From positions 1-35,871 of IMG/VR virus record IMGVR_UViG_3300022227_000012: a DNA stretch of 35,871 bases; one strand, given 5' to 3'. Numbering within the stretch: position 1 is the first letter of the stretch; every line of letters starts with the position of its first letter. The position numbers were made by a program, and so were the translations under genes. Shown one piece after another: positions 4,168-21,042 of this stretch. This DNA comes from a virus. The notes beneath the pieces were generated by a model. It was not told the origin of the DNA and searched no databases. It worked only from the letters and a program-made list of their open reading frames with translations.

Positions 4168-4575
4168 ATGACTATGGCAAGGACAAAGCCAAACAGTAAA
4201 GGCCCGGGAAGGCCGAAGATTAACATAGATTGGGACGACTTGGATAAGTTACTGGCCCTACAATGTACACTAGAAGAGGTAGCTTTCTTCTTTGACGTTA
4301 GCCCGGATACAATACAACGACGGGTAAAATCGGTTAAACGATGTACCTTTGGGGAATACTATAAACTTAAGTCGGCCGGTGGCCGGACTTCGATAAGGCG
4401 TAAACAGTTCGAAGAGGCTTTAGACGGTTCTATCCCTATGTTAATATGGTTAGGTAAACAGTATTTAGGACAAAAGGATAAGAAGGAAACCGAAATAACC
4501 GAACTTAAACCTATTAAAGTCTTGGACATTATGACCGAGGAAGACTTGGTAGCGAACTTATCCATTTCGAACTAA
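4168..4575 (+). CDS. terS: Terminase small subunit
   Basis: This is a 135-residue protein counted from the ATG at 4168, which has AAAGGAAA eight bases upstream; a GTG at 4132 is in frame but has no site. After a GRPK tail, the segment IDWDDLDKLLALQCTLEEVA leads into VSPDTIQRRVK, a DNA-binding helix-turn-helix. RRKQFEEALDGSIPMLIWLG plus KQYLGQKDK is the signature of phage TerS proteins of this type. The subunit recognises the packaging site and loads the large subunit. The 3' end overlaps the likely TerL start, and the large subunit frame follows immediately. Confidence 0.85.
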   Translation: MTMARTKPNSKGPGRPKINIDWDDLDKLLALQCTLEEVAFFFDVSPDTIQRRVKSVKRCTFGEYYKLKSAGGRTSIRRKQFEEALDGSIPMLIWLGKQYLGQKDKKETEITELKPIKVLDIMTEEDLVANLSISN

Positions 4576-5792
4576 AGACAAACCAAAAGAAGGTTTTACA
4601 AAGTACGAGCCGGTTTACAATTTTATCCGCCGGAAGACGCTTCGGAAAATCGACCATAGGATTACTATATCTTTTAAACGGGGACTTAATACCCGGTGGT
4701 CGCTATTGGTTTCTTGGACCCACCTACCGCCAGACCCGGTTAATAGCTTGGCACTTATTAAAGGGAATGTTTAGAAACCAACCGGTAAAGATGAACGAAA
4801 CGAACTTAAGCGTAACACTACCCAACGAGGCGGAAGTAAGATTAGTGGGGGCCGATAGGCCGGATAACTTACGCGGTAGTTTTCTTAACCGGGTAGTATT
4901 GGACGAAATAGCTTATATTAAACCGGGAACCTTCGAAGAGGTAATTTTCCCAATGTTAGGAACGACTAAACCCCCCGGCCGGGCCTTGTTTACCGGGACC
5001 CCTAACGGAATGGGACCTTTTAAAAAGTATTTTGATTACGGTAACGACCCAAATAATAAAGATTGGGGAAGCTTCCACTTTACCACTTTAGAAGGCGGTT
5101 ACGTCCCGGCCGACGAAGTAGCAAGGGCCAAGGAATATTTAGACCCCCGAACCTTTAGCCAAGAATATTTAGGGACTTTCGAAAATTACGGGGGGCAACT
5201 ATATTATACTTTTAAACAAACCCCCCATACGGCCGACTTAAAACATAACCCCAACCTACCTATATGGATAACCGCCGACTTTAATAAAGAACCTATGGTA
5301 TGGGAAATAGCCCAAATACACGACAAGCGGTTAAATATAATCGACGAAATCTATATACGCTATTCGGCCAAGACCCATATAGCCGTCGCGGAATTCTTGA
5401 AGCGTTACGGAAACGTTACAAATAAGTTAGTATATGTTACCGGGGACGCGTCTAATAACTACGAAAGCCATAGGGACTATACGACGGACTATATAATTAT
5501 CCGCGACGCTCTAATGGAAAAGGGTTTCCGGGTAGTGGTACAAGTACCGAAGCGGAATCCAAATATAAACAATCGTATAAATATAGTTTGTAGCCTACTA
5601 ACTAATGGCCGTTTAACTATTTCCCCCAAGTGTAAACAGTTAATAGACGACTTAAACCAAGTAGAAAGCGATAATAAAGGGGGCAAAAACAAAGAGGACC
5701 CGGCCCGTACTCACAGTAGCGACGCGTTAGATTATCTTGTGTGGCGACTATTTAGCCGGGAATTCTTTAAACAAACAATAAAACAAATTTAG
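4560..5792 (+). CDS. terL: Terminase large subunit (ATPase/nuclease), non-canonical start
   Basis: The packaging motor, about 410 residues. Walker A is SAGRRFGKST (residues 23-32), Walker B is VVLDE (D115, E116), and the coupling segment is TGTPNG. The nuclease domain shows ITADFN (D240), VTGDAS (D296) and HSSDALDY (D388). The frame is open back to a stop at 4515, but there is no ATG, GTG or TTG before 4767, and that ATG lies beyond Walker A. The most natural start is ATC at 4560, which gives the usual N terminus (HFELKTNQKKVLQS) and a 16-base overlap with TerS. Alternatives are a -1 frameshift from TerS or a sequence error. The product is certain; the 5' end is not. Confidence 0.85.
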   Translation: MHFELKTNQKKVLQSTSRFTILSAGRRFGKSTIGLLYLLNGDLIPGGRYWFLGPTYRQTRLIAWHLLKGMFRNQPVKMNETNLSVTLPNEAEVRLVGADRPDNLRGSFLNRVVLDEIAYIKPGTFEEVIFPMLGTTKPPGRALFTGTPNGMGPFKKYFDYGNDPNNKDWGSFHFTTLEGGYVPADEVARAKEYLDPRTFSQEYLGTFENYGGQLYYTFKQTPHTADLKHNPNLPIWITADFNKEPMVWEIAQIHDKRLNIIDEIYIRYSAKTHIAVAEFLKRYGNVTNKLVYVTGDASNNYESHRDYTTDYIIIRDALMEKGFRVVVQVPKRNPNINNRINIVCSLLTNGRLTISPKCKQLIDDLNQVESDNKGGKNKEDPARTHSSDALDYLVWRLFSREFFKQTIKQI

Positions 5793-5801
5793 GATAAGAT
5801 T

Positions 5802-7250
5802 ATGGCGACTCTAACAGAATTAACGAAAGCAATTACTACGAATACTATAGGTTCGGACGACAAAGGCCAAAGGGCTATAACCCGGGACCTATTCTATACC
5901 CAAGATAACAAGGGGGTACAAGGTCTTTTAACCGACGACCTAAAGAAGTACGTAGATACGGCGGATATTTCACGAATGAAGCTTATTACCTTAGACTTTT
6001 TTATCCCAGCGTTTTTAGAAAAGCTTTGTAGCGTCTACGATGTAGCCCCGGTTTTTAAGTACGAAGAGGGGGTAGGCGATAAAGACATAGAATTATTTAC
6101 CGCGTTAATTGAAGAAACCCGAATACATAGTATTTTCCAAGAAAGCTTCTTACGGTGTAGGCTACATAATACAATAATAGCAAACGTTAAATACGCTTCT
6201 AATTTAGACCGGGTTTTCATAGACAACTCTTACCACGCCGGTAATACAGAAGTACTAACCTATTCCGATGTACATACAGAGCCTAAAATTATATATTGGG
6301 AAGAGGTAAGGGGGGCTAATAGTATTTGGATAGTATGGGACCGGGAAAAGGGTTTCCATTACTGGACCCCCAAGAAGCCGGAATACGACGCGAAAATAAA
6401 CGACATAGTAGGGGCTAAACACCCTATAGGGGACAACCCCGACCTATTAGGCCCGGACTATTGGCCCTTCGTTGTTTATAGATACCGGGACCACTCTAAC
6501 AAGTTTTGGGGTTATGGTATGGACGCTATCGTAGAACTAATACGGTCTATAAATGTTTTATTAACAGTATGTAACGACGACACTATCCAAGAAACTATAA
6601 GGCTACTTATCTTAAACTTTAATCCTACCGGGACCGAAGGGGAACGGGGCCAACTAAAGACCGGTCTACGGCATCCTTTATTTATGGAATCCGCTATAGG
6701 CGACAGTAAACCGGAAGGGGAAATCCTTTCGGCCAACCTTTATAATAAAGATGTAGTAGAACTAATAGAAAAACTAACGGACTTCGTTAGTAAGCTACAT
6801 AATGTAGACAACATTTTAAGGGCGGAATTACAACAAAATTTAAGCGGGATAGCCTTAAGGCTTAAGAACGAACCGCAACTACGCCAATGGGCCAAGGATA
6901 TAAACATATTAAGGCCAATGGACCGCGACTTATTGCAAACATTGGTAGACGTTAATAACTACCACCGGGAACCGGGGCGACAAATTAGCGACGGCTTTTT
7001 AGAACGGGTAAGCGTAGACTACCAAGAACCGCGAATAGTTACGGACGAAAAAGAAGACTACGAATTAGAACGGGCGAAATGGGAAGACGGGACAAGTAGC
7101 CCTATCCGGTATATACTTAAGAAAAACCCGGAATTTAACGAAGAGGAAGCGGGGGAATACATACGCTTAAATTTGGCGGTCTTTAACGGAATAATGGGAA
7201 TAGGTGTCGGTATTCCGGTAGACGAAGAACAAGAAGGGGACATAGGTTAA
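5802..7250 (+). CDS. Portal protein
   Basis: This is a 482-residue protein with SPP1/HK97-like portal character. It has an N-terminal helical wing, a strand-rich stem (KIIYWEEVRGANSIWIVWDR), WPFVVYRYRDHSNKFWGYG, and the long helical segment from SINVLLTVCNDD to VELIEKLTDFVSKLHNV that forms the channel. It ends in an acidic tail. Twelve such subunits form the ring through which DNA enters and leaves the head. It begins 9 bases after TerL with AGGATAAG as the ribosome site, the expected order. The length is normal for the family. Confidence 0.82.
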   Translation: MATLTELTKAITTNTIGSDDKGQRAITRDLFYTQDNKGVQGLLTDDLKKYVDTADISRMKLITLDFFIPAFLEKLCSVYDVAPVFKYEEGVGDKDIELFTALIEETRIHSIFQESFLRCRLHNTIIANVKYASNLDRVFIDNSYHAGNTEVLTYSDVHTEPKIIYWEEVRGANSIWIVWDREKGFHYWTPKKPEYDAKINDIVGAKHPIGDNPDLLGPDYWPFVVYRYRDHSNKFWGYGMDAIVELIRSINVLLTVCNDDTIQETIRLLILNFNPTGTEGERGQLKTGLRHPLFMESAIGDSKPEGEILSANLYNKDVVELIEKLTDFVSKLHNVDNILRAELQQNLSGIALRLKNEPQLRQWAKDINILRPMDRDLLQTLVDVNNYHREPGRQISDGFLERVSVDYQEPRIVTDEKEDYELERAKWEDGTSSPIRYILKKNPEFNEEEAGEYIRLNLAVFNGIMGIGVGIPVDEEQEGDIG

Positions 7251-7253
7251 ATT

Positions 7254-7697
7254 ATGCCGAGATTTAGTAAAAGAAGTAAGAGCCGGTTAAAAACTTGCGA
7301 CAACGAATTACAAACTTTATTTAACGAAGTGGTTGTCCGCTACGATTGTACGATATTATGTGGCCACCGGGGTAAGACGGCCCAAAATAAAGCCTTTAAC
7401 GATGGATTTTCCAAGCTTAAATACCCGAATAGTAACCATAATAAAATTCCGAGTATGGCCGTAGATGTGGCCCCCTATGTAGGTAAGGCCCGGGGTAATA
7501 TAGATTGGAAAGATATAAACCAGTTTTACCACTTCGCCGGGTATGTCCGGGGGGTAGCGGAACGACTTTTAAACGAAGGCGTATTAACTTATACTTTACG
7601 TTGGGGGGGGGACTGGAGACGAACATACACCCAAACCAAAAAGAACAAGTTTCGGGACCTTGTACACTTCGAACTAGATAAAAAAGTAAGGAAATAA
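7254..7697 (+). CDS. M15 family peptidoglycan endopeptidase (endolysin)
   Basis: A 147-residue L-alanyl-D-glutamate peptidase of the VanY/M15 type. The core reads TILCGHRGKTAQNKAF, then NSNH (H62), AVDVAP (D71), LRWGGDW (117-121) and DLVHFEL (H138). H62, D71 and H138 are the expected zinc ligands. It cuts the peptide stem of peptidoglycan to lyse the cell or assist entry. No signal peptide is visible, so it needs a holin or virion delivery. The place is unusual: three bases after the portal gene, about 10 kb from the holin candidates. The family assignment is strong. Confidence 0.88.
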   Translation: MPRFSKRSKSRLKTCDNELQTLFNEVVVRYDCTILCGHRGKTAQNKAFNDGFSKLKYPNSNHNKIPSMAVDVAPYVGKARGNIDWKDINQFYHFAGYVRGVAERLLNEGVLTYTLRWGGDWRRTYTQTKKNKFRDLVHFELDKKVRK

Positions 7698-8137: not shown

Positions 8138-8347
8138 ATGAATATTAACGCCCTAACCGAAAAAGAAGCGAAATTAGTAAGGCTTACCCAACCGAAAATA
8201 AAAGAAGCTATAGGCGGATTAATTAGGGCCGGATTTAAACGCGACGAAGAAAAGATAATAGTAGCTAAAAAGAAGCTAAGGAAAGTAATAAGGCCTTCCG
8301 TTATTTCCGGCCTTACTTTGGGTGTTAAGTGGCTAAAATCAAATTAA
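8138..8347 (+). CDS. Hypothetical small basic protein
   Basis: This is a 69-residue, lysine- and arginine-rich helical protein (EKEAKLVRLTQPKIKEAI, then VAKKKLRKVIRPSVISGLTL). It has a good ribosome site (GGAAAGACC). The last 19 bases overlap the next gene. It is probably DNA- or capsid-associated because of charge and context; no family is recognised. Confidence 0.5.
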   Translation: MNINALTEKEAKLVRLTQPKIKEAIGGLIRAGFKRDEEKIIVAKKKLRKVIRPSVISGLTLGVKWLKSN

Positions 8348-8901
8348 ACCTACAACCATTTTTTCATAAGGAAGCTAGATTATTACGGGGCCAGTATAGG
8401 CGACTACTAACACTAAAGAAGGGAATACGAAACGACACGGCCCCACGTAATAAACCTTCTACAATATTAAGCAAGGGGGCCGACCACTGGTTAATAAATA
8501 CCGGGGAAACAAGGGACAAGGGAATAGGCTTTTCACGTACCCGAACTGGAATGTCGGTCTACGCGAAATACGCAAAGCACAGTGGAAACCGCGTTTATAT
8601 GGGGGTTAAAGGTGGACATAAGGGCCAAAAAAGGGGGGTACACCGGCCCCGGGACCAAAGGCGAATAGTAAACTCGTCAGCCCAAGCCACTCCGCCGTCA
8701 TACACCGACCTTTTTATTTGGCATAATAAGGGGGGGGACCGGACCGCAATGTATAACCGGACCGAAAGGTATTCCGGTATTTTCCAAAAGTGGCCCGTAG
8801 GTTCTAAATTTCCCGACCGGTTAGCAAACGCGGTACGGGGGCAAATAAAAGAACATATAATAAAAGAAATTTCCCGCGAAAATCTTATCGAGGGGTTTTA
8901 A
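8329..8901 (+). CDS. Virion morphogenesis/tail-completion-like protein
   Basis: This is a 190-residue protein that starts at GTG inside the previous gene. The central segment DHWLINTGETRDKGIGFSRT resembles the W-x-x-TG-x-x-x-S core of Mu gpG/HK97 gp10-type virion morphogenesis proteins, followed by a strand (MSVYAKYAKHSG), a basic loop, and YTDLFIWHNKG. Such proteins sit at the neck and complete head-tail joining. It directly precedes the MuF-like gene with a one-base overlap (TAATG), as in Mu-related neighbourhoods. Assignment is from motif rhythm and position only. Confidence 0.4.
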   Translation: MAKIKLNLQPFFHKEARLLRGQYRRLLTLKKGIRNDTAPRNKPSTILSKGADHWLINTGETRDKGIGFSRTRTGMSVYAKYAKHSGNRVYMGVKGGHKGQKRGVHRPRDQRRIVNSSAQATPPSYTDLFIWHNKGGDRTAMYNRTERYSGIFQKWPVGSKFPDRLANAVRGQIKEHIIKEISRENLIEGF

Positions 8902-10562
8902 TGTCTAACGCATTCAAGTTTAAATATAAAGGCACGAAGGTTCATACCTTGGTAGATTTGTATACAAAAGAAGCAGAAGATATGGCTGATATGGTAACAA
9001 AAAAGGCCCACGGGTGGGTGGTACGTCTAATAATGGAGGGCTATGGCAGAAAGCACGCCGAAAAAAGGACGTTAATGTTGGTAGATATGGGAATAGGTCC
9101 TTTTCAAGATATGGAATGGCAAATTAGGCGAATGACGGACGCACTATATAAAGAAGTAGTAGCGGAACCTATAAAAGAATATGCACGCCAAAACCCGGAG
9201 GAACTATTACTATGGAAATTAGGCCGGGTTAAGACGGACCACTGTTCGGACTGTATAACACTTTCCACGCTTAAGGCCAGAACTATAAAGGGTTGGAAGA
9301 ACGTAATGCTAAAGGAAGGGGGGCGTAGGACGGGCCTACCAAGGGAAGGAAAAACCAAATGTAGTTACGGGTGTAAGTGTATGTTAAAACCGACCGGTAA
9401 ACTCGAGCCACTTGCAGACACTCGAGAGAAAACATTAAGAGAAGAGAAAAAGAAGAAAGAAGAAACCGGGACTAAGGGGGTAGCAAAGTCGGAACTTCGG
9501 CCTAATATGTGTGGTAAACATTTGACTGTACGCGAGGCGGAAGCTTGGGCTACTCATAATTTTACAAGAGAAGACGGACGTCCGTTAGTGGTTGACTATT
9601 CACAGTTAAACGACCCGGATATGGCAAACGGATTTAACCTTCAACTTAAACAACTGTATGAAGACTTCCCCAATAACGACTTAGAGCAAGTAATGGCCGG
9701 AGAAATCAATAGTACGTGGATGGGATTATGTAGTGGCGGTAGCGAAATAACTATACAAACGAAGTTCGCAAACCAAACCCAAGAAAAGGCCGACGAACAT
9801 TACATTCATAATCAGATACGGCGGTTTCACCCGGAAACCATTAGGGGAGAGAAAAACCCACGGGGTTACCGTAAATCTGTACTTACCCACGAATTCGGAC
9901 ACGTTTTATCTTGGCGGTATGTTCGACAGTCTAATTCTTGGGCCTATCTGGAAACGAATGGCACTTGGGCCGAAGGTATGCCGAAAAAACTAAGAGAAGC
10001 ATATAATAGATATTTAAAAGATGTAAAAGCCTTTAACAAACGTTGGGGTGAGCCCCACATTTATAAGCCGTCCGAGACTAGGGCCATAGATGCTTCACTT
10101 GATTACTTGTATGCTGAAGGGGGGGACAATCGAGGGAACTGGAGAAAGTTACATCAAGAAATGGCCCCACCCGGAAAAGATAAGGGCGGTTATGTTTACG
10201 CCCCCTCAAATATGCAGTGGCACTCCAATAACCCAATACGTAAGCCGGCAACAGAGGGCGGAGTTCTTCCGTTTGTACGAGGACCTTACTATACACAATC
10301 CGAAGTTGACGCTTTTGTAGCGGAACGCGACGAATTCTATTTGTCGAAATATGCCGAAGACGATTTAGATGAGTTTGTAGCCGAAGCCGTATGCCAACAT
10401 TTTAACGGCGTACAGAAGTCCCCCTATGCCAGAGAAGTTTATGAGATATTAAAAGAGCATTACGCAAAGCGAACCGGAAAAGAGACAGAGCAAGAACAAG
10501 AACAAGAACGTATAATAAGTGAAGAACGTGACAGAGAAGAGTGGTTCGAAACGGGAAAGTAA
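8901..10562 (+). CDS. MuF-like minor head protein fused to a zinc metallopeptidase domain
   Basis: This is a 553-residue two-part protein. Residues 1-165 are a phage head-morphogenesis (MuF) domain: helical start, then DHCSDC (113-118) and CSYGCKC (154-160), the paired cysteine motifs of minor head proteins. A charged linker (165-195) leads to an unrelated domain with SVLTHEFGHVLSW, an HExxH zinc site (H330, E331, H334), and a later EFVAEAVCQHF whose E495 could be the third ligand, as in gluzincins. The tail is acidic and Gln-rich. Published MuF polymorphic toxins carry C-terminal effector domains injected with phage DNA, and I infer the same here. The codon choice of the C-terminal part looks looser than that of its neighbours, which suggests acquisition. 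Confidence 0.78.
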   Translation: MSNAFKFKYKGTKVHTLVDLYTKEAEDMADMVTKKAHGWVVRLIMEGYGRKHAEKRTLMLVDMGIGPFQDMEWQIRRMTDALYKEVVAEPIKEYARQNPEELLLWKLGRVKTDHCSDCITLSTLKARTIKGWKNVMLKEGGRRTGLPREGKTKCSYGCKCMLKPTGKLEPLADTREKTLREEKKKKEETGTKGVAKSELRPNMCGKHLTVREAEAWATHNFTREDGRPLVVDYSQLNDPDMANGFNLQLKQLYEDFPNNDLEQVMAGEINSTWMGLCSGGSEITIQTKFANQTQEKADEHYIHNQIRRFHPETIRGEKNPRGYRKSVLTHEFGHVLSWRYVRQSNSWAYLETNGTWAEGMPKKLREAYNRYLKDVKAFNKRWGEPHIYKPSETRAIDASLDYLYAEGGDNRGNWRKLHQEMAPPGKDKGGYVYAPSNMQWHSNNPIRKPATEGGVLPFVRGPYYTQSEVDAFVAERDEFYLSKYAEDDLDEFVAEAVCQHFNGVQKSPYAREVYEILKEHYAKRTGKETEQEQEQERIISEERDREEWFETGK

Positions 10563-10580
10563 CTTGGAGGATTTTTAATT

Positions 10581-10847
10581 ATGGAAACTAAAAAAAATAT
10601 TGCTATTGAAATGCCTTGTATGTCTTGCCGGTTTTTCGACCACAAAGTACTGGGCCCGGACCAAGACGGCTTTATATGTAAGGCCTTTCCGGAAGGAATA
10701 CCGAACGAAATTTTAATGGGGAACTTCGACCACCGGACCCCCTACCCCGGCGACAACGACATACAGTTTAAGCCTATAAGTGTCGCCTTTACTATTAGTC
10801 AGTTTTTGGAATACCAAGCTAAAAAAACCCCGAAAGATTCCCCCTAA
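10581..10847 (+). CDS. Cysteine-rich phage protein (AFPxGIPxEI motif)
   Basis: This is an 88-residue protein 18 bases after the MuF fusion, with a GGAGG ribosome site. It has CMSCRFFD, a third cysteine in [14 protein letters not shown], then [14 protein letters not shown]. From memory, I have met this pattern (C-x2-C, C-x-AFP-x-GIP, H-x2-PYPGD) as a small conserved phage protein or domain near minor head genes, with metal binding likely. Its position could also fit an immunity protein for the peptidase domain, but the motif is more like a structural accessory. Followed by a terminator. Confidence 0.55.
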
Positions 10848-10868
10848 ACCCCTATAATAAGGGGTTTA
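10845..10868 (+). terminator. Intrinsic terminator after the head-morphogenesis genes
   Basis: A perfect 9-bp stem, TAAACCCCT paired with AGGGGTTTA, with a six-base ATAATA loop. It begins on the stop codon of the cysteine-rich gene. The U-tract is weak (CGGTCTTT), so termination may be partial. It closes the packaging/head operon. Confidence 0.6.
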
Positions 10869-10893
10869 CGGTCTTTCCCCCCTTAAATAGTTC

Positions 10894-10922
10894 TTGCATA
10901 TTTCTATAGGTTGTTGTAATTT
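10894..10922 (+). promoter_or_regulatory. Sigma70-like promoter for the accessory island
   Basis: TTGCAT (10894-10899), 17 bases, TAATTT (10917-10922). It sits directly after the terminator. The start codon at 10929 falls where transcription should begin, so the mRNA may have little or no leader. Confidence 0.5.
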
Positions 10923-10928
10923 GTTATT

Positions 10929-11372
10929 ATGAATAACGTAAAACAACGACGCGGATTAACCCTTCTACGGGTAGGAAGTCTTAAGAAAGTCCTTCGGGAT
11001 TTAGGCTTACAATCTACCACGGAAGCATTGGTCCAGTTAGACCGCGAAGTAGCTTACCTTATAAAGAAGTATGGGAAGGACCAAGCCGAACAAGGAATAA
11101 AACGGCTAAATGGCGATACTTCTTTAATGTCAATAACCGGAACAAGTCGTAGCAAACCCCACCCCATAACCGAAACGGAAAAAGTCGATTCCGTTTTAGG
11201 TAAATCTTGCCAAAGGTGTAGCGGAATAAAAGACGCTTTCTTACAAAAGGCACGGTCAGAAATGCGGTGGTTCTACGATGAAATAAAAACCGGAATTATA
11301 CGGGCTAGTAATGGTAAAAAGTATAATCCGGATTGGGCGACTAAACAAGGACGTATAAATAACATAACCTAA
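10929..11372 (+). CDS. Hypothetical helical protein with a CxxC motif
   Basis: This is the first gene of the island, 147 residues. Residues 14-60 are two helices (GSLKKVLRDLG, then TTEALVQLDREVAYLIKKYG) whose spacing is faintly like the first two helices of a histone fold; a third helix is not evident. After a Ser/Pro linker come CQRC and a second helical part (FLQKARSEMRWFYDEIK) ending in a basic tail. No ribosome site is visible, in keeping with a very short leader from the promoter at 10894. I do not recognise a family; the histone comparison is weak. Confidence 0.5.
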   Translation: MNNVKQRRGLTLLRVGSLKKVLRDLGLQSTTEALVQLDREVAYLIKKYGKDQAEQGIKRLNGDTSLMSITGTSRSKPHPITETEKVDSVLGKSCQRCSGIKDAFLQKARSEMRWFYDEIKTGIIRASNGKKYNPDWATKQGRINNIT

Positions 11373-11460
11373 CCACCTAACCGGTCCGGCTCTACGGCGT
11401 CTTATGACAAAGTAAGAACAAACAGACCACCGGGGGCCGGGCCATAATTAAGGGGACACT

Positions 11461-11763
11461 ATGCAAATGGTAAAAACAATATGCGACCGCGAAGGTTGTA
11501 AAGGCGAAGTAAAGGATAGCCGTAAAGTTTCAGTTATGCGGTTTAACCCTTATAATAAATATGCGTCTTTCCACCTTTGTAGTTATTGCGAAAAACTGGT
11601 CTTTACTTTCCTACGGGGGTTTATGGAAGACAAGATAATACCCGGGCCGTCCGGTAACTACGAACTACACCCCGAAAGGGATTACGATAAAGAATATTGG
11701 GAAATATTAGGGACCGTAGTAGAACGGCTTAAAAAGTGTTTGCCTATTTGGGGGGAAGTATGA
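11461..11763 (+). CDS. Small zinc-binding-like protein
   Basis: This is a 100-residue protein with AAGGGGACACT before its ATG. CDREGCKG near the N terminus and HLCSYCEK at about residues 37-44 give two cysteine pairs and a histidine, a plausible single zinc site of the treble-clef or ribbon type. The rest is charged and helical. The stop overlaps the next start (ATGA type). It may bind nucleic acid or host protein. Family unknown. Confidence 0.5.
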   Translation: MQMVKTICDREGCKGEVKDSRKVSVMRFNPYNKYASFHLCSYCEKLVFTFLRGFMEDKIIPGPSGNYELHPERDYDKEYWEILGTVVERLKKCLPIWGEV

Positions 11764-12041
11764 AATACAACGGTTGGACAAATTGGGAAACTTGGAACTT
11801 CAAACTCTGGATTGAAACCGATGAAGGTTCTTATCATAAAGCGTTAAATATGGCAAACGGTAAGAATGGCTATCAACTCTCATTAGCGTTAGAAAATTGG
11901 GCATACGATATGTTTGACGAGTTAGGGGTGGAGTCTGGTTTTTTTGCTGACGTTTGTAAAACATCAATTAGTGAAATCAATTTCTACGAAATCGCGGAAT
12001 CTTATCTTTTAGAAACAGAGGAAGGGGAGGCCACTTCCTAA
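11760..12041 (+). CDS. YNGWTNxETW family small protein
   Basis: This is a 93-residue protein. I chose the ATG at 11760 (overlapping the previous stop, after GGGGGGAAGT) over an in-frame ATG at 11736, because MKYNGWTNWETWNFKLWI is exactly where homologues begin. Proteins with YNGWTNxETW are common in phages, plasmids and hosts; some databases label them DUF7249 (from memory). Function is unknown. Base usage (more CTC, CTG, GCG, TTT) differs from the flanking genes and suggests a separate origin. Confidence 0.7.
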   Translation: MKYNGWTNWETWNFKLWIETDEGSYHKALNMANGKNGYQLSLALENWAYDMFDELGVESGFFADVCKTSISEINFYEIAESYLLETEEGEATS

Positions 12042-12059
12042 CCCCGGGCCATTTTTTTT
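12020..12059 (+). terminator. Possible weak terminator
   Basis: GGAAG (12020-12024) can pair with CTTCC (12034-12038), and GGCC (12029-12032) with GGCC (12047-12050), followed by eight T residues at 12052-12059. The stems are short and mutually exclusive. The T-run at a gene end, just before a promoter, is the main support. Confidence 0.35.
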
Positions 12060-12086
12060 ACCCTATATTATTATTATAGATTTCTG

Positions 12087-12115
12087 TTGGTTTCTATAAG
12101 GATAGACCGTATATT
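12087..12115 (+). promoter_or_regulatory. Sigma70-like promoter
   Basis: TTGGTT (12087-12092), 17 bases, TATATT (12110-12115). It is followed by a leader of about 35 bases to the ATG at 12156. It follows a T-run and would drive the second half of the island. Confidence 0.5.
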
Positions 12116-12155
12116 TATCACCGTGACAAACACAAACGAAAGAAAGGAAAGTAAA

Positions 12156-12341
12156 ATGAAAAAGTTCGCACGAAATAAAACAGAAGCAAAAAAGCTATTC
12201 AAGGAAAGGACGCACTTTGAATGGAATTCAGAAGAACACCATAACCAAGGCAGATTCAATGTAACTATTTTTAAACTATCCAAACCAACGCCTAAAAGGA
12301 AATTCTTTGTTGGTACTCACTTTGAATGGATGGAATTATAA
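12156..12341 (+). CDS. Small basic hypothetical protein
   Basis: This is a 61-residue protein. The ATG at 12156 is chosen because GAAAGGAAAGTAAA precedes it and because an upstream ATG at 12087 would overlap the promoter. It is Lys- and Phe-rich, with the phrase THFEW present twice (residues 22-26 and 55-59), so it may be a small duplicated strand structure. No family recognised. Confidence 0.5.
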   Translation: MKKFARNKTEAKKLFKERTHFEWNSEEHHNQGRFNVTIFKLSKPTPKRKFFVGTHFEWMEL

Positions 12342-12347
12342 CCTAAC

Positions 12348-12365
12348 AGAAAGGATAGCGAAATG
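12348..12365 (+). promoter_or_regulatory. Conserved translation leader, copy 1
   Basis: GAAAGGATAGCGAAATG spans the ribosome site and start of the gene at 12363. The same string occurs at 13482-13498, and GAAAGGATAACGAAAT at 12885-12900. Conservation extends past the Shine-Dalgarno core into the spacer. Confidence 0.6.
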
Positions 12366-12902
12366 GACAACAAAACGACTACTTGGACGACAAAGCTAAA
12401 GGCTTTGTTTTCCCTTAACCTACCGGCCGTAACAATTTCCGGCCAACTTTCCGGCCTACCGACGGACGCCCGTTCCGGCCCGGACGCTGACAAAGAAATA
12501 GAACACAACGGCATACATCTCACCGCTTTAGCGAAAAGGTTTTACCCGGGTAAGAAAATCGAACGCCGTTTTAACAAGTCTTTAATAGGAACCGCTACCG
12601 ATTTGTTAGGCTATGTTTCGGAAGGCGTTTTCTATGAGATAGCTTGTTACGATTGTCGAGTAGGTTACGGTTCAATAGATAACCCACATTACAACCCTAA
12701 AGAATACGGTATAAGGAAGACCGATAATTACGGGGGTTGGGAACTAATACCGGACGCTTCCGGAACATTTGACCGGGAACCGTCAATAACAGAACAAGCC
12801 CGCCTAGACCACGCGGTAGCCTACATAGAAGGAACAGAAGGCTACGAAGATAAAGTAGAATGGTTTAACGGGTTAACCCAAAAAGAAAGGATAACGAAAT
12901 AG
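12363..12902 (+). CDS. Hypothetical island protein
   Basis: This is a 179-residue protein. The N-terminal 40 residues are low-complexity (TTTWTTKLKALFSLNLPAV, Gly/Pro/Ser). The body holds ACYDCRVGYGSIDNPHY, with two close cysteines, and an acidic end. The stop TAG shares a base with the GTG of the next gene. No family recognised. It is one of three consecutive genes with the same leader string, which suggests matched expression. Confidence 0.5.
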   Translation: MDNKTTTWTTKLKALFSLNLPAVTISGQLSGLPTDARSGPDADKEIEHNGIHLTALAKRFYPGKKIERRFNKSLIGTATDLLGYVSEGVFYEIACYDCRVGYGSIDNPHYNPKEYGIRKTDNYGGWELIPDASGTFDREPSITEQARLDHAVAYIEGTEGYEDKVEWFNGLTQKERITK

Positions 12903-12904
12903 TG
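12884..12904 (+). promoter_or_regulatory. Conserved translation leader, copy 2
   Basis: AGAAAGGATAACGAAAT followed by AGTG, serving the GTG start at 12902. It overlaps the last codons of the upstream gene, so the leader string is kept even where it must also encode protein (RITK). Confidence 0.55.
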
Positions 12905-13450
12905 AGTAAACATAAGGTAGTACATTACGACCTAACGAGTAAAAAAGAAACCGCCGATATGCTCTACGGTTCTTGTCCGGAAGCCCATAGGCTTTATTTG
13001 GCCGGAGAAGACAAAGAAGCCCACGCGGTACTAATGGCCAAAATAGACGAAGACAACCGAAAGAAGTGGAACGGCGAAAGTCTTAAAAGCCGTTTAGCCC
13101 GTTGTCTATTAAAAGGAAAGTTCTTCCTTCGGGACCTTATTTTTATCGGCGATAAGTTAGTCGTTAAAAATACCCCTAACTGTATTAGTAATTCGCTAAC
13201 AATAGAATACACGAATAACCAGTTAGGCGAAAGCGTACAAGTGTTAGGCCTTCCTAATGATATGGAAGCTTGGACCCTATTACAAGCCATAGACGACTAC
13301 CTAACAAACCCATACGACGAAACACGTTACGACGGATTAAAGGGCGTATATGTACAAGTATGGAATTTCGACGGTAGTAGTAACGCGACGGATTCTTACG
13401 AGTTAGGTTTTAAAGAATCCGCCCCATATAAACACCGTTTTAACCAATAA
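12902..13450 (+). CDS. Hypothetical island protein
   Basis: This is a 182-residue protein starting at GTG. It is mixed alpha/beta, with a helical N-terminal part (CPEAHRLYLAGEDKEAHAVL), a basic centre (SLKSRLARCLLKGKFFLRDL) and a strand-rich C-terminal half (TIEYTNNQLGESVQVLGL, then KGVYVQVWNF). No catalytic motif is seen. The following gap holds a strong GAAA-loop hairpin. Function unknown. Confidence 0.5.
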   Translation: MSKHKVVHYDLTSKKETADMLYGSCPEAHRLYLAGEDKEAHAVLMAKIDEDNRKKWNGESLKSRLARCLLKGKFFLRDLIFIGDKLVVKNTPNCISNSLTIEYTNNQLGESVQVLGLPNDMEAWTLLQAIDDYLTNPYDETRYDGLKGVYVQVWNFDGSSNATDSYELGFKESAPYKHRFNQ

Positions 13451-13462
13451 CAGAAAACAAGG

Positions 13463-13482
13463 CGGGGGCCGAAAGGCCCCCG
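13463..13482 (+). promoter_or_regulatory. GC-rich hairpin with GAAA tetraloop before a ribosome site
   Basis: CGGGGGCC paired with GGCCCCCG, closed by a GAAA loop: a perfect 8-bp stem with a GNRA tetraloop. There is no T-run after it, so it is not a classic terminator. It ends directly against the leader AAAGGATAGCGAAATG of the next gene. Likely roles are mRNA stabilisation, an end-point for processing, or control of ribosome access. Confidence 0.7.
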
Positions 13483-13498
13483 AAAGGATAGCGAAATG
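13482..13498 (+). promoter_or_regulatory. Conserved translation leader, copy 3
   Basis: GAAAGGATAGCGAAATG, identical to the copy at 12349-12365. Its first base is the last base of the GAAA-loop hairpin stem. Confidence 0.6.
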
Positions 13499-14797
13499 AT
13501 GAATATAATAAGGAAAATAAAAGACGGACTTTTCGAAGTAACCGTTAAGCAAATGGTTCCGGCCGGGCCACACTATAAGCGTATCCGTAGCGATAAGAGG
13601 CGTAACGGTATCTTAAGTAAGCTTATAGGCCTAATGCGGTCCTTTACGACGGATTCTATTTTAGAATACGACGACCGCTTTAAGCTAAAAAAAGACGGAG
13701 ACGTCCAATTTACCTACAAGGGCGAAACCGTAGACCTTACCTTAATCCCATACTATAGAAAGCCTTTCCGCTTTTATAAATATGTGGTTAGTGTAGCCGG
13801 GATAAAAAGGGTTGGTAAGGAAGTAAAAGACTACTTCCGCAACAAACACACGTTTAATTCGTATAGCTATACGAAACTCGACGAATTGGTCGGTAAAGGC
13901 GATAACCCGTTCCCTTGGAAGCCGAATATACAAACCGAACCTACGGCGAACGTGGTAGGGTGTAGCGATAAAATACCGTACCGGACAGAATACCGGGACC
14001 ACTTCCCTACAGTCGAAGTACGCTTTAGCGATAAGGTTAAAAGGTCCGCTAACATATTGGCCGAAATTCCCGGACGCGGTAACGTGTTTAACGACGATAC
14101 CTACGGGGTAAAATTGGTTCGTCGGCAAATGCAAACGGCCGACTTTAGAATGGTCCTTAATATCTGTCTTGTTGGCGTTTCGCACGACGATAAGTTTAGG
14201 ATAGAATCCCATTCTTCTGGTTTGGACGGTAATAACCACCGGGCCAAATGGGGGTATAATGGAAAAACTACTACCTTAAAACCCCATTTAAAAAGGTTGG
14301 TAGAAAAGATAGAAGGGACCATAGACCGGGCGGAAGACAATAAGAAATGGACCGACCGGAATAAGGCGGAACTAAACAAAAACGAAGCTATTTTCGGGGG
14401 CATTTATTCCGAGACCGGATTAAAGGCCGAAGAGGAAACGGTCCGCGATTTAGTGGCCCTTCCATTAGCTAACGGCGAATACGGAAACTACGGATATGTC
14501 GCCACGAAAGACGGGGCCAAATTTTGCATAGTAAACGGCGGAAGGGGTAAGGTGGGTGAATTTGCGTATACTTGTAAAGCTAGTTTCGTTAGCTTCCACG
14601 TTTCCTTCTCTTCGGCGACCGGATTCTATACTATGGACGAAATGGACAATACAATGGCCGGCTTTTCGACAATGACCCGGGAAGACCTAGTCGAAGTTAT
14701 TAAGATTATGGTAAAAGGCGTAGACCGTAACTTTACAAAGCGTATTTCCGTTTTTGTAAAGTGTGTTAAAGACGGTTTCTGTATGGATGAAAATTAA
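13496..14797 (+). CDS. Large hypothetical island protein
   Basis: This is a 433-residue protein, the largest in the island. It starts at ATGATG after the shared leader; either ATG could be used. The N-terminal third is basic (KRIRSDKRRNGILSKLIG, then FRFYKYVVSVAGIKRVG) and the centre carries PTVEVRFSDKVKRSANILAE. A later basic, charged segment (EGTIDRAEDNKKWTDRNKAE) and a Ser/Phe-rich strand region (ASFVSFHVSFSSATGFY) precede a cysteine-containing end (VKCVKDGFCMDEN). No known fold is recognised. It ends at a strong terminator, so it is the last gene of the island transcript. Confidence 0.55.
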   Translation: MMNIIRKIKDGLFEVTVKQMVPAGPHYKRIRSDKRRNGILSKLIGLMRSFTTDSILEYDDRFKLKKDGDVQFTYKGETVDLTLIPYYRKPFRFYKYVVSVAGIKRVGKEVKDYFRNKHTFNSYSYTKLDELVGKGDNPFPWKPNIQTEPTANVVGCSDKIPYRTEYRDHFPTVEVRFSDKVKRSANILAEIPGRGNVFNDDTYGVKLVRRQMQTADFRMVLNICLVGVSHDDKFRIESHSSGLDGNNHRAKWGYNGKTTTLKPHLKRLVEKIEGTIDRAEDNKKWTDRNKAELNKNEAIFGGIYSETGLKAEEETVRDLVALPLANGEYGNYGYVATKDGAKFCIVNGGRGKVGEFAYTCKASFVSFHVSFSSATGFYTMDEMDNTMAGFSTMTREDLVEVIKIMVKGVDRNFTKRISVFVKCVKDGFCMDEN

Positions 14798-14830
14798 AAT
14801 ATAACCCGAAGTAGTACGCCTAACAAAAAG

Positions 14831-14860
14831 AAAGGGACCCTAACCGGTCCCTTTTTTTTT
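14831..14860 (+). terminator. Strong intrinsic terminator closing the island
   Basis: AAAGGGACC paired with GGTCCCTTT around a six-base loop (CTAACC), running into an uninterrupted stretch of T. A textbook rho-independent terminator. Confidence 0.9.
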
Positions 14861-14879
14861 AATTCCCAAATTTTAGGGG

Positions 14880-14909
14880 TTGGTTTTTACTGTAGTCTAA
14901 ACATATAAT
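14880..14909 (+). promoter_or_regulatory. Sigma70-like promoter for scaffold and capsid genes
   Basis: TTGGTT (14880-14885), 18 bases, perfect TATAAT (14904-14909). It lies between the terminator and the scaffold gene. A leader of about 38 bases follows. This is probably the main promoter for the structural genes. Confidence 0.6.
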
Positions 14910-14953
14910 ACAACTATGATTGAACAAGCCACTTAATATAAAAGGATTAAACT

Positions 14954-15565
14954 ATGGATATAGTAAAGCTAACGGACCGGGTTAGGTCCGAAGTAGATAA
15001 GGACAAATTAGAAGCCTTAACGCCCATACTAAAAGAAATAGAAGTCGGGGTTGTTACGCTTATTGAAAACGTTAAAGACGCTTCGGCGGAATCAAAAGCC
15101 CGGAAGCTTAAAATTCGCGAAATGCAAGGCCAACTAAACGACAACGACGTAGATATAGACGAACTACGGAAAAAGGCCGATACAAGCGAATTAACGGCAG
15201 AATTGAAGGATTTAAAAGTCTTCAAAGCCGGTGTACAAGAAGAAACGCGGACCAGTTTTTTAAACCGTTATAATAAGGTTAAAAACGACCCCCGTTTCGA
15301 AAAAGCTTCTACGTTTTTGAAAATGCCGGAAGCCGGGGAAAATGGCGAAATGGACTTTACGGAAATAAGTAACGACGATATGGCCGGTAACTTAACAGAA
15401 CTTAAAAAACTGGACCAGTTAGATTATTTCTCTTCGCCGGAAAAACCAAAAGAAGCCCACGCGGACCAAGTGCCGAAGGGCCAACAAGACTTTGGGACCC
15501 GGGTAAAAGGTGCTACTTCAATAGCCGATTTAGAAAAGCTTAACGAAGAAATGGCCGGGGCGTAA
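14954..15565 (+). CDS. Capsid scaffolding-like protein
   Basis: This is a 203-residue acidic helical protein directly before the capsid gene. Residues 20-100 are coiled coil (RKLKIREMQGQLNDNDVD, then ELRKKADTSELTAELKDL). The C-terminal part has a proline/glycine linker and a short helix (SIADLEKLNEEMAG), the layout of phage scaffolds, which bind the capsid through their C terminus and leave before maturation. No protease motif is seen. The start follows AAAGGATTAAACT. Assigned from composition and position. Confidence 0.6.
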   Translation: MDIVKLTDRVRSEVDKDKLEALTPILKEIEVGVVTLIENVKDASAESKARKLKIREMQGQLNDNDVDIDELRKKADTSELTAELKDLKVFKAGVQEETRTSFLNRYNKVKNDPRFEKASTFLKMPEAGENGEMDFTEISNDDMAGNLTELKKLDQLDYFSSPEKPKEAHADQVPKGQQDFGTRVKGATSIADLEKLNEEMAGA

Positions 15566-15592: not shown

Positions 15593-16462
15593 ATGGCAGA
15601 TGTAAAAACTACCGCTTCGGTATTAGGCGATTCACAAATAGCCTTAATGGACCAAGCTTTCCAAGTGGAAGCCGGGGACAGAATCGTAGCGGACCAATTC
15701 GCAAGTTACCGTCGAAGTATCGGGGCTAAATCTATAGACTTTGTAAAATATTCGAAGATGGATTACGCCGTAACCGAACTTACGGACGGCTCGGATGTAG
15801 ACGCCGTAGCAATGGCCGATAGTAAAGTAACCTTTACCCCGAAAGAATACGGTAACGTGGTTACTAAAACTTCTTTAGCGTCCCTACAAAGTGGCGGTAA
15901 AGCAGACCTTGGGGCTTCCCAAGTCGTCGCCCGGAATATGGCAGAATCTTTAAACCGTTTAGCTTGTTTAAGCTTACAAGGTTCCGCGAATAATAAGGAC
16001 GGTTCTTCGGCTAATATAACCGAAGCCCTTTTAGACGCGGTATTCTTTGAGTTAAACAACAAAAACGCTGAACGGTGGGACGGGGACGCTTACGTTTGTA
16101 TGTGTCACCCGGCCGTAGCCCAAGATATAGCCGGATTTTCGGCTTGGAAAGACGTACAAAAGTACGCCGACGCTATGCCTATCCTTCGTAACGAAGTAGG
16201 CTTCTATAAAGGATTCCGGTTTATTAGTTCGACCGGTATGCCTTTTACAGACGCGGACCCCGACGTACACGAATCGGCCTTTTTTGGTCGAAACGCTTTT
16301 GGAAAAGCCGAAAGCCAATCCGCCGAAATGCGAATTACTGGGCCCTTTGATAAATTGGGCCGTATGTTAAATATCGGTTGGTATTGGGTAGGCGATTACG
16401 GTATCGTAGACCAAGATAGTTTATGGTCCGTACAGTCCTTAAGTAGTTACGTCGCTTCGTAA
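15593..16462 (+). CDS. Major capsid protein, N4-gp56-like HK97 fold
   Basis: This is a 289-residue protein. The segment RRSIGAKSIDFVKYSKMDYA and DVDAVAMADSKVTFTPKEYG, then NVVTKTSLA, followed by LNRLACLSLQGSANNK, match the N4-gp56 family of major capsid proteins, which adopt the HK97 fold. The later AYVCMCHPAVAQDI and GFRFISSTGMPF are typical of the A domain. Hundreds of copies build the head. Length is at the short end for the family. The strong start (AGGAATATAAAA) and the hairpin after the stop fit a highly expressed gene. Confidence 0.82.
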   Translation: MADVKTTASVLGDSQIALMDQAFQVEAGDRIVADQFASYRRSIGAKSIDFVKYSKMDYAVTELTDGSDVDAVAMADSKVTFTPKEYGNVVTKTSLASLQSGGKADLGASQVVARNMAESLNRLACLSLQGSANNKDGSSANITEALLDAVFFELNNKNAERWDGDAYVCMCHPAVAQDIAGFSAWKDVQKYADAMPILRNEVGFYKGFRFISSTGMPFTDADPDVHESAFFGRNAFGKAESQSAEMRITGPFDKLGRMLNIGWYWVGDYGIVDQDSLWSVQSLSSYVAS

Positions 16463-19872: not shown

Positions 19873-21042
19873 ATGCCGTTCGACAATGACATAACTTTAA
19901 AAAACTCGCTTACTTCTAAAGACATAAGCGAAACTACTTTAATGGAAAAGGTTATGGAATACGCCGGTAGCCCTTTGGTTAGTGGGAATATACCGGACGA
20001 CGAAAGTATCTTAAAAAGTGTTAACGGTGCTATCCAAAATTTACGTAGCGAATTAGTAAAACTTCGTAGCGACGTTAACGAATTACACCAATATATAGGC
20101 CGGGCTTTTGGTCCGGCTTCGGTTAATGCGACTTCGCAAGGTCCAACCGGGGCCACCGGTCCCCAAGGCCCCCAAGGGGCTACCGGCCCGGCCGGTTCTA
20201 CTGGTCCTACTGGAAATACCGGACCTATCGGAAGTACTGGACCGGAAGGCTTGGTATGGAAAGGAACTTATAGTAGTAGCACGGCCTACGCCATAGACGA
20301 CGCGGTATTTTATAACGGTTCTTCTTATGTGGGTATAAAAGCCGGTACAAATAAAACCCCTTCCACTTCTACCACTTATTGGGCCAAGCTTTCCGCTAAA
20401 GGCGATACCGGGGACACCGGAAGCCAAGGAAATACCGGCTCTACCGGACCAACTGGCCCCCAAGGAACTAAAGGCGATACCGGGAATACTGGTAATACCG
20501 GCCCTACCGGACCCCAAGGAACTAAAGGCGATACCGGGACCCAAGGACCGGAAGGCGATAGGGGACCAACTGGCCCTCTTGGTCCAAGCGGACCAACCGG
20601 GGCTACTGGTTCTACTGGTCCTACTGGCCCCCAAGGGACCACCGGGACAACCGGGGCTAAAGGCGATACCGGAAACCCCGGGGCTACTGGTTCTACTGGA
20701 CCCCAAGGGACGACCGGGCTTAAGGGGGACAAGGGCGGAAAAGGAGATAAGGGCGAAAAGGGGGACGAAGGAAGCCAAGGAACTACCGGGGCTAAAGGCG
20801 ATACCGGAAACCAAGGAACTACCGGGGCTACTGGACCCCAAGGGACCAAAGGCGACGCCGGTAGCGATGGGGTTAAAGGAAATACCGGTCCGGCCGGTGC
20901 TACTGGTTCGCAAGGTGCGACCGGTCCTACCGGTGCTACTGGTAATAGCCACCTATCGGGCGTAAGTGCTATAATTATAGATAAGGGTAGGCTAAAAGTA
21001 ACTATAGGGGGGAACGTGTATTATTTCGTTCCGGCTAAATAA
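19873..21042 (+). CDS. Collagen-like virion protein with carbohydrate-binding insert
   Basis: This is a 389-residue protein. The N terminus is helical and partly coiled ([19 protein letters not shown]). A first Gly-X-Y block (about residues 95-132) is interrupted by a roughly 45-residue domain ([19 protein letters not shown], then TTYWAKL) that resembles CBM5/12 chitin-binding modules. A long second Gly-X-Y block runs from about 177 to 358, rich in GDTG, GPQGTK and a lysine-rich patch, followed by a short strand-rich cap ([18 protein letters not shown]). This predicts a trimeric collagen-type rod, probably a capsid or tail spike. The repetitive DNA creates long spurious frames on both strands. 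Confidence 0.85.

What the first reader, a model, noticed from the sequence alone, without database searches (positions are those of the whole stretch)
8901..10562. Minor head protein fused to a zinc metallopeptidase: likely injected effector
Residues 1-165 carry the paired cysteine motifs of MuF/head-morphogenesis proteins. After a charged linker, residues 195-553 hold HEFGH plus a downstream E-F-V-A-E-A motif, a gluzincin-like active site. MuF proteins with C-terminal toxin or enzyme domains are known, but I do not know a characterised metallopeptidase version of this kind. The peptidase could be carried in the virion and enter the host with the DNA, or act during head maturation. The C-terminal half seems to have looser base usage, which suggests acquisition.
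Basis: partly seen in the sequence, partly recalled or inferred. Interest (0 to 1): 0.75.

Follow-up and report, generated by a model that had tools for sequence, protein, structure and literature searches.

The report
Phage head protein carrying a protease
A phage gene joins a small head protein to an enzyme that probably cuts proteins inside the infected bacterium; related phages carry other enzymes, or none, at the same spot, so the head protein looks like a swappable cargo carrier of a kind already known elsewhere.

Summary
ORF 8901-10562 (553 aa) is a MuF-like minor head protein (residues 1-164), a charged linker, and a zincin-type metallopeptidase (about 194-534) with HEFGH at 330-334 and E491-x3-E495. 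The best solved matches of its model are the anthrax lethal factor protease domain and a Pro-Pro endopeptidase. In related phages found through the portal, the MuF-like gene is a cargo slot. Of 12 distinct relatives whose gene is covered, five end right after the last Cys motif, one has a 42-residue tail, four carry a PI4-kinase-like domain, one an HNHP-motif domain and one another HExxH domain. Four of the bare ones have capsid proteins 48-51% identical to the window's, so head maturation should not need the peptidase. Best reading: a polymorphic MuF-like protein whose peptidase is packaged and acts in the host. Packaging, injection and activity are inferred. MuF toxins with metallopeptidase domains are in print (Jamet 2017). 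New here are the divergent MuF-like lineage, the absence of a recognised integrase and the kinase cassette.

The parts
8901..10562 (+). MuF-like minor head protein fused to a zincin metallopeptidase, 553 aa
8901..9392 (+). MuF-like N-terminal domain, residues 1-164
   Evidence: aligned to stand-alone 150-160 aa orthologues in L041, L047, L053, L057, L069; trend of fold matches to minor capsid / MuF / head morphogenesis proteins
9243..9380 (+). paired cysteine motifs C115-x2-C118 and C154-x3-C158-x-C160
   Evidence: these five cysteines are invariant in the 12 rows of alignment A12
9393..9479 (+). charged linker, residues 165-193, near where orthologues end or turn into other cassettes
9480..10502 (+). 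zincin metallopeptidase domain, residues 194-534 (lethal-factor / Pro-Pro-endopeptidase-like)
   Evidence: AlphaFold model pLDDT 66.6, pTM 0.68; VIA-align top Z 10.9; homology to Papyrus gp12
9888..9902 (+). HEFGH zinc-binding and catalytic motif, residues 330-334
10053..10283 (+). insert of the peptidase, residues 385-461, low confidence in the model
   Evidence: pLDDT under 50 for model residues 192-268
10371..10385 (+). E491-x3-E495, likely third zinc ligand (E491 preferred) and second-shell acid
   Evidence: both invariant in the 9 rows of A10
8329..8901 (+). conserved gene just before the MuF-like gene (weak neck-type profile match, E 0.016)
   Evidence: tblastn match in 18 of 20 relatives
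5802..7250 (+). portal protein by position and conservation (used to find the related phages)
   Evidence: no PHROG match
4767..5792 (+). large terminase; the open frame with a Walker-A-like GRRFGKST continues upstream of this ATG
14954..15565 (+). scaffold-like protein by position
15593..16462 (+). major capsid protein
   Evidence: phrog_1357 E 4.7e-29
10563..14953 (+). extra block of small genes between MuF-like gene and scaffold
   Evidence: none of eight ORFs tested has a tblastn match in the DNA held for the 20 relatives, not all of which reach this far

Best explanation
The gene encodes a MuF-like minor head protein whose N-terminal domain takes it into the head near the portal. Its C-terminal part is an interchangeable cargo: here a zinc metallopeptidase of the lethal-factor / Pro-Pro-endopeptidase type. 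The protein is probably carried in few copies in the virion, enters the cell with the DNA, and cuts one or more host proteins early in infection. Shown by computation: the two-part make-up, a zincin-like model with its active-site motif, and that the same slot holds other domains or nothing in relatives. Inferred: packaging, injection, proteolytic activity and a host target.
For: Zincin model and matches. Related zincin domains occur on MuF proteins of other phages. Papyrus gp12 is matched directly; Indlulamithi gp8 is matched through Papyrus; L017 and L029 have Phage_Mu_F matches above the curated cut-off. L019 and L022 share only the motif pair and have Phage_Mu_F matches below the cut-off. 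The zincin type also occurs on a 3,483-residue ORF (L014) and a protein annotated as DNA helicase. Polymorphic slot at a fixed junction. The HNHP cassette of L068 also ends a Dorea phage protein with a MuF-type Cys motif (by eye) in the gene after the putative portal. On the portal tree the window falls, with modest support (83/92), among four phages with a bare MuF-like protein. SPP1 gp7, a MuF protein, binds the portal at 1-2 copies per capsid, and MuF toxins are proposed to be delivered with the DNA (passages of PMC5576092). A MuF ADP-ribosyltransferase kills bacteria, and MuF alarmone synthetases inhibit growth (passages of PMC11699363).
Against: No virion or infection data, and no known host target. 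No Pfam match for either half. Foldseek alone gave no significant PDB match (best E 0.64). Comparison of this MuF-like family with five canonical MuF domains is weak (probability 25%). No clear immunity gene: a homologue of the next ORF that I looked at lies near a DNA ligase gene. The relative with the most similar capsid protein, L070 (57%), also has an HExxH domain in the slot. The kinase-bearing phages and L068 gave no match to the window's capsid protein, so they say nothing on head maturation here.
Confidence: 0.6

Rival explanations
1. The peptidase is the head maturation protease: it cuts scaffold or capsid protein during head assembly, and is placed on the MuF-like protein to be inside the procapsid.
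For: Papyrus gp12 and Indlulamithi gp8 are annotated as head maturation protease in the NC_ records; the PHROG match carries that name; no other prohead protease was recognised in the window ORFs scanned, which were not all. L070, with the most similar capsid protein (57%), also has an HExxH domain there.
Against: L041, L053, L057 and L069, with capsid proteins 48-51% identical, have a bare 153-160 aa protein. The same zincin type also occurs outside a MuF context.
Confidence: 0.14
2. The peptidase is mainly a self-processing device: it cuts the linker so that the MuF-like and C-terminal parts separate before packaging or after injection.
For: Autoprocessing by zincin domains is proposed for phage polyvalent proteins, with P1 DdrB processed before packaging (passages of PMC5512222); here a charged linker lies between the domains.
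Against: No further enzyme to release was recognised: after self-cleavage the product would be the peptidase itself. N4 virion RNA polymerase, with a zincin domain, is packaged unprocessed.
Confidence: 0.18
3. The domain is a decaying or inert insertion without enzymatic role.
For: Lowest codon adaptation of 18 genes; this cassette occurs in one of the 13 phages compared.
Against: Active-site residues are intact; two other viral contigs encode the protein at 100% identity and the MAG contig L067 holds a 553-aa ORF with the motif; homologues keep HExxH.
Confidence: 0.08

Closest known systems
MuF polymorphic toxins of phages (Jamet et al. 2017, PMC5576092; Bxa, PMC11699363; passages seen)
   Same: MuF N-terminus next to portal and capsid genes, variable C-terminal enzyme, metallopeptidase domains included (20% of 191)
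   Different: The N-terminal domain here is not recognised by Pfam; no integrase found, while the 2017 set was tied to temperate phages; no convincing immunity gene; a PI4-kinase-like cassette occurs in relatives
Mycobacterium phage Papyrus gp12, annotated head maturation protease / MuF-like minor capsid protein
   Same: Lies between portal and scaffold genes and ends in a homologous zincin (blastp E 4e-8 for the pair)
   Different: 856 aa; classical MuF (Pfam Phage_Mu_F, E 4.8e-5, below the curated cut-off); a further stretch between MuF and zincin. Other head genes were not compared by sequence
Anthrax lethal factor protease domain / Pro-Pro endopeptidases (M34-type zincins, label recalled)
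   Same: Best structural matches, Z 10.9 and 8.6
   Different: 12-14% identity in those rows; here on a phage head protein with a bacterial host
Zincin-like MPTase domains of phage polyvalent proteins (Iyer et al. 2017, PMC5512222; passages seen)
   Same: HExxH plus a C-terminal glutamate helix; often on proteins thought to be delivered at infection
   Different: One recognised enzyme on a short MuF-like protein, not a giant multi-enzyme protein; clade membership not tested

Membership tests
MuF minor head proteins | gene lies with portal, scaffold and major capsid genes | tested here: met
   order terminase, portal, conserved gene, MuF-like gene, scaffold-like gene, capsid in the window and L041; from the conserved gene on also in L057 and L070
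MuF minor head proteins | match to Pfam PF04233 (one of several MuF profiles; the MuF3 and MuF4 profiles of Jamet 2017 were not at hand) | tested here: not met
   no match at E up to 1; profile comparison with five canonical domains weak, probability 25%, E 8e-4 for the pair. Hence 'MuF-like': works like a MuF protein, membership open
MuF minor head proteins | fold like MuF / minor capsid proteins | tested here: inconclusive
   of 28 named rows among the 50 listed BFVD matches (266 in all), 18 are minor capsid, MuF or head morphogenesis proteins, at E 0.016 or worse; PDB gave only helical look-alikes
MuF polymorphic toxins | constant N-terminal part with interchangeable C-terminal domains | tested here: met
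   12 distinct relatives: 5 bare, 1 with a 42-residue tail, 4 kinase-like, 1 HNHP, 1 other HExxH domain
MuF polymorphic toxins | small downstream immunity gene | tested here: inconclusive
   an 88-aa ORF follows (10581-10847); of 6 phage records with a homologue, the one looked at (Jenst) has it near a DNA ligase gene
MuF polymorphic toxins | toxicity in a bacterial cell | not testable with these tools
   no experiment
Zincin metallopeptidases (gluzincin / lethal-factor-like) | HExxH with a downstream glutamate | tested here: met
Zincin metallopeptidases (gluzincin / lethal-factor-like) | zincin fold | tested here: met
   VIA-align best Z 10.9 over 174 residues; nearly all of the 50 listed rows are zincin peptidases by title. 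Model confidence is moderate and Foldseek alone was not significant
Zincin metallopeptidases (gluzincin / lethal-factor-like) | zinc binding and peptidase activity | not testable with these tools
   no experiment
Head maturation proteases | needed for capsid maturation, so kept with a similar capsid protein (comparative test only) | tested here: not met
   absent in four relatives with 48-51% identical capsid proteins; L070 (57%) has another HExxH domain

The most novel reading that the evidence does not exclude
A lineage of phages, three of them in contigs of Marinimicrobia genomes, uses one MuF-like head gene as a cargo slot for virion-delivered enzymes. The slot is loaded with unrelated activities (lethal-factor-like peptidase, another HExxH domain, PI4-kinase-like kinase, HNHP-motif domain) or left empty. 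If the phages are virulent, as the lack of a recognised integrase in the window suggests, the cargo serves takeover of the host or counter-defence rather than lysogeny or competition between lysogens.
Probability: 0.45. Interest if true: 0.7.

Novelty: new variant of a known kind. Interest (0 to 1): 0.48.

Why it matters
It gives a natural set of related phages that differ in what sits behind one head protein, so the question whether MuF cargo is a host-takeover effector or a head-assembly tool can be tested by comparison and by removal of one residue. It also extends MuF cargo to a divergent domain family and to a phage without a recognised integrase, which would loosen the proposed tie of MuF cargo to lysogeny.

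Tried and rejected
Pfam at E up to 1 gave one chance-level match. PDB by sequence and plasmids by tblastn gave nothing for the protein or its peptidase part. Phages by tblastn gave nothing for the whole protein or the MuF half and only weak matches (best E 0.06, Papyrus-type) for the peptidase half. The AlleyCat scaffold and Erwinia phage matches were looked at and dropped as chance. A combined alignment of MuF and peptidase rows (A9) put the peptidase rows on the MuF part and was not used. Iterated profile searches were trusted for the first two rounds only; later rounds drew in proteins that look unrelated. The target set (1,770 ORFs) was enriched by a motif scan, so those E-values flatter. 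Rows L010-L030 were fetched by the pattern for THEFGHVL, so their HEFGH is kept by construction; the downstream ExxxE was not selected. Of the five homologues not chosen by that pattern, all five have HExxH and four the ExxAE form. MuF-like fold against PDB: best Z 6.9, helical look-alikes. The kinase label rests on a PI4K2 profile match, one TIGR03843 match far below its cut-off (L058, the only one of four submitted) and two PF00454 matches at E 0.04 below the cut-off. The HNHP and L070 HExxH labels rest on motifs read by eye. Of the 20 relatives, six whose contigs stop before or within the first bases of the MuF-like gene (L040, L054, L055, L056, L065, L066) were left out of the counts, and L059 and L061 were merged with L058 and L062.

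Full report
What is there. The window is a virus record of 35,871 bases. Its ends overlap and other contigs run across the junction, so I take it for a complete circularly permuted genome of about 35.0 kb. The ORF at 8901-10562 codes for 553 residues. It sits after the terminase (4767-5792, PHROG E 1.8e-29), the portal (5802-7250) and a conserved gene (8329-8901), and before a scaffold-like gene (14954-15565) and the major capsid protein (15593-16462, phrog_1357 E 4.7e-29).

N-terminal part. Residues 1-164 carry C115-x2-C118 and C154-x3-C158-x-C160. Pfam does not recognise it. It is a separate domain: in L041, whose capsid protein is 48%, portal 39% and terminase 38% identical, the orthologue is a 160-residue protein that aligns to residues 7-164 (E 6e-24) and ends there. 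L047, L053, L057 and L069 likewise have 150-158 residues. A model from 12 rows (pLDDT 81, pTM 0.55) was compared with BFVD: of 28 named rows among the 50 listed, 18 are minor capsid, MuF or head morphogenesis proteins, at E 0.016 or worse. Profile comparison with five canonical MuF domains is weak (probability 25%). So the MuF label rests on position, cysteine motif and a trend in the fold matches, and I write MuF-like.

C-terminal part. Residues 256-352 match phrog_17987 (E 3.5e-5), a profile of 856 positions named head maturation protease. Papyrus gp12 has 856 residues and that annotation; it was not itself scanned against PHROGs. P0001 and gp12 align at E 4e-8 for the pair. AlphaFold on nine rows gave pLDDT 66.6 and pTM 0.68, with residues 385-461 unsure. 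Foldseek against PDB had nothing significant (best E 0.64). VIA-align of its candidates put the anthrax lethal factor protease domain first (Z 10.9, rmsd 4.1, 174 residues, 13% identity) and Pro-Pro endopeptidase PPEP-3 next (Z 8.6, 159 residues), followed largely by aminopeptidases. A sequence profile ranks oligopeptidase A (0.0012) and lethal factor (0.0021) highest in the PDB, although any HExxH gains there. In BFVD the best match is the Indlulamithi protein (E 1.9e-5). E491 and E495 are both kept in the 9 rows of A10.

The slot. A portal profile found 21 loci in viral contigs, 4 of them the window's own phage or near-copies, and 4 in genome contigs. One of those 4 is nearly identical to the window (99.8%) and lies in a MAG titled Rhodospirillaceae; the other three lie in MAGs titled Marinimicrobia or Neomarinimicrobiota, so the host is unsure. 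That leaves 20 relatives; 14 reach the MuF-like gene, 12 of them distinct. Five have a bare protein (L041, L047, L053, L057, L069). L064 adds 42 residues with a hydrophobic end. L058, L060, L062 and L063 add about 520 residues with DRHxGNW and IALIDNG motifs that match PI4-kinase type 2 (profile E 7e-9). L068 adds about 200 residues with HNHPSSGSFSPDD; the same cassette ends a Dorea phage protein with a MuF-type Cys motif. L070 has another HExxH domain with no link to this one beyond the motif region (hhalign probability 32% over 38 columns, blastp E 0.13). Homology to the window's protein stops between residues 162 and 191 in nine of the 13 matched loci; in the other four (L058, L059, L061, L062, which are two phages) a weak match runs on to 231-237. 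On the portal tree the window groups with L053, L057, L041 and L069, support 83/92, below the strict mark.

What the capsid genes say. The window's capsid protein is 57% identical to that of L070, 51% to L053, 49% to L069, 48% to L041 and L057, and 34% to L064; L058-L063 and L068 gave no match. So the case against head maturation rests on four relatives with a bare protein and a similar capsid protein.

Elsewhere. Related zincins are joined to MuF in other phages: L017 (Phage_Mu_F E 1.2e-7), L029 (1.9e-13), Indlulamithi (0.0018) and Papyrus (4.8e-5), the last two below the curated cut-off; in L015 the zincin comes first. L019 and L022 pair a Phage_Mu_F match below the cut-off with the zinc motifs alone. 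The type also occurs in a 3,483-residue ORF in L014, in tandem in L021, on a protein annotated as helicase in Racecar, and on a 352-aa protein in Alma. It behaves as a mobile module.

How it works, most likely. [quoted passage not shown] The fused peptidase would be packaged and enter with the DNA, then cut host proteins. Self-processing may occur as well (passages of PMC5512222). No integrase was recognised among the 17 plus-strand ORFs of 200 residues or more, each scanned against PHROGs or Pfam; smaller ORFs were scanned in part, so a repressor cannot be ruled out. The phage looks virulent. Jamet et al. tied MuF toxins to temperate phages, but a Microbacterium cluster (EJ) with MuF-VIP2 fusions shows no features of temperate phages (passage of PMC7302621).

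Novelty. MuF toxins with metallopeptidase domains are in print (20% of 191, passage), and zincin domains are the commonest in phage polyvalent proteins (passage). A search for 'MuF toxin' with metallopeptidase returned only that one paper. A search with MuF, kinase, phage head, polymorphic and phosphatidylinositol held 5,561 papers at three terms; by title and abstract start none of the eight listed reports a MuF-PI4-kinase fusion. MuF pyrophosphokinase toxins are known (PMC12226406, listing only). The library is open-access only. The finding is a new variant of a known kind; its added value is the clean polymorphic slot in one phage lineage.

Noticed in passing
L058, L060, L062, L063 MuF-like genes (e.g. 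L063:4829-6817): MuF-like protein fused to a PI4-kinase-type-2-like domain (profile E 7e-9 to solved PI4K2) in four distinct related phages; the L063 cassette has no tblastn match in the phage collection.
   Followed up: partly
window 4530-4767: The terminase reading frame is open upstream of its first ATG/GTG/TTG and holds a Walker-A-like GRRFGKST: an unusual start codon, a frameshift or a sequence error.
   Followed up: partly
window 10563-14953: About 4.4 kb with at least eight small ORFs between MuF-like gene and scaffold, without a match in the DNA held for 20 relatives; no Pfam match for the five tested.
   Followed up: partly
window 7254-7697: Endolysin-like gene (phrog_465, E 1e-31) placed between portal and MuF-like gene, an odd place for a lysis gene (recalled).
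   Followed up: no
window 19873-21042: Tail fibre gene with collagen-type repeats and 49 PHROG matches.
   Followed up: no
L068:3457-4506 and L072:2415-3923: The same HNHP-motif cassette ends two otherwise unlike head-gene proteins, one in a Neomarinimicrobiota MAG contig and one in a Dorea phage.
   Followed up: partly
L058-L063 and L068: These relatives share portal, neck and MuF-like genes with the window but gave no tblastn match to its capsid protein, which suggests a different or very diverged capsid gene, or DNA that stops short of it.
   Followed up: no
L064:12757-13305: MuF-like orthologue with a 42-residue tail after the Cys motif that ends in a hydrophobic, possibly membrane-seeking stretch.
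   Followed up: no
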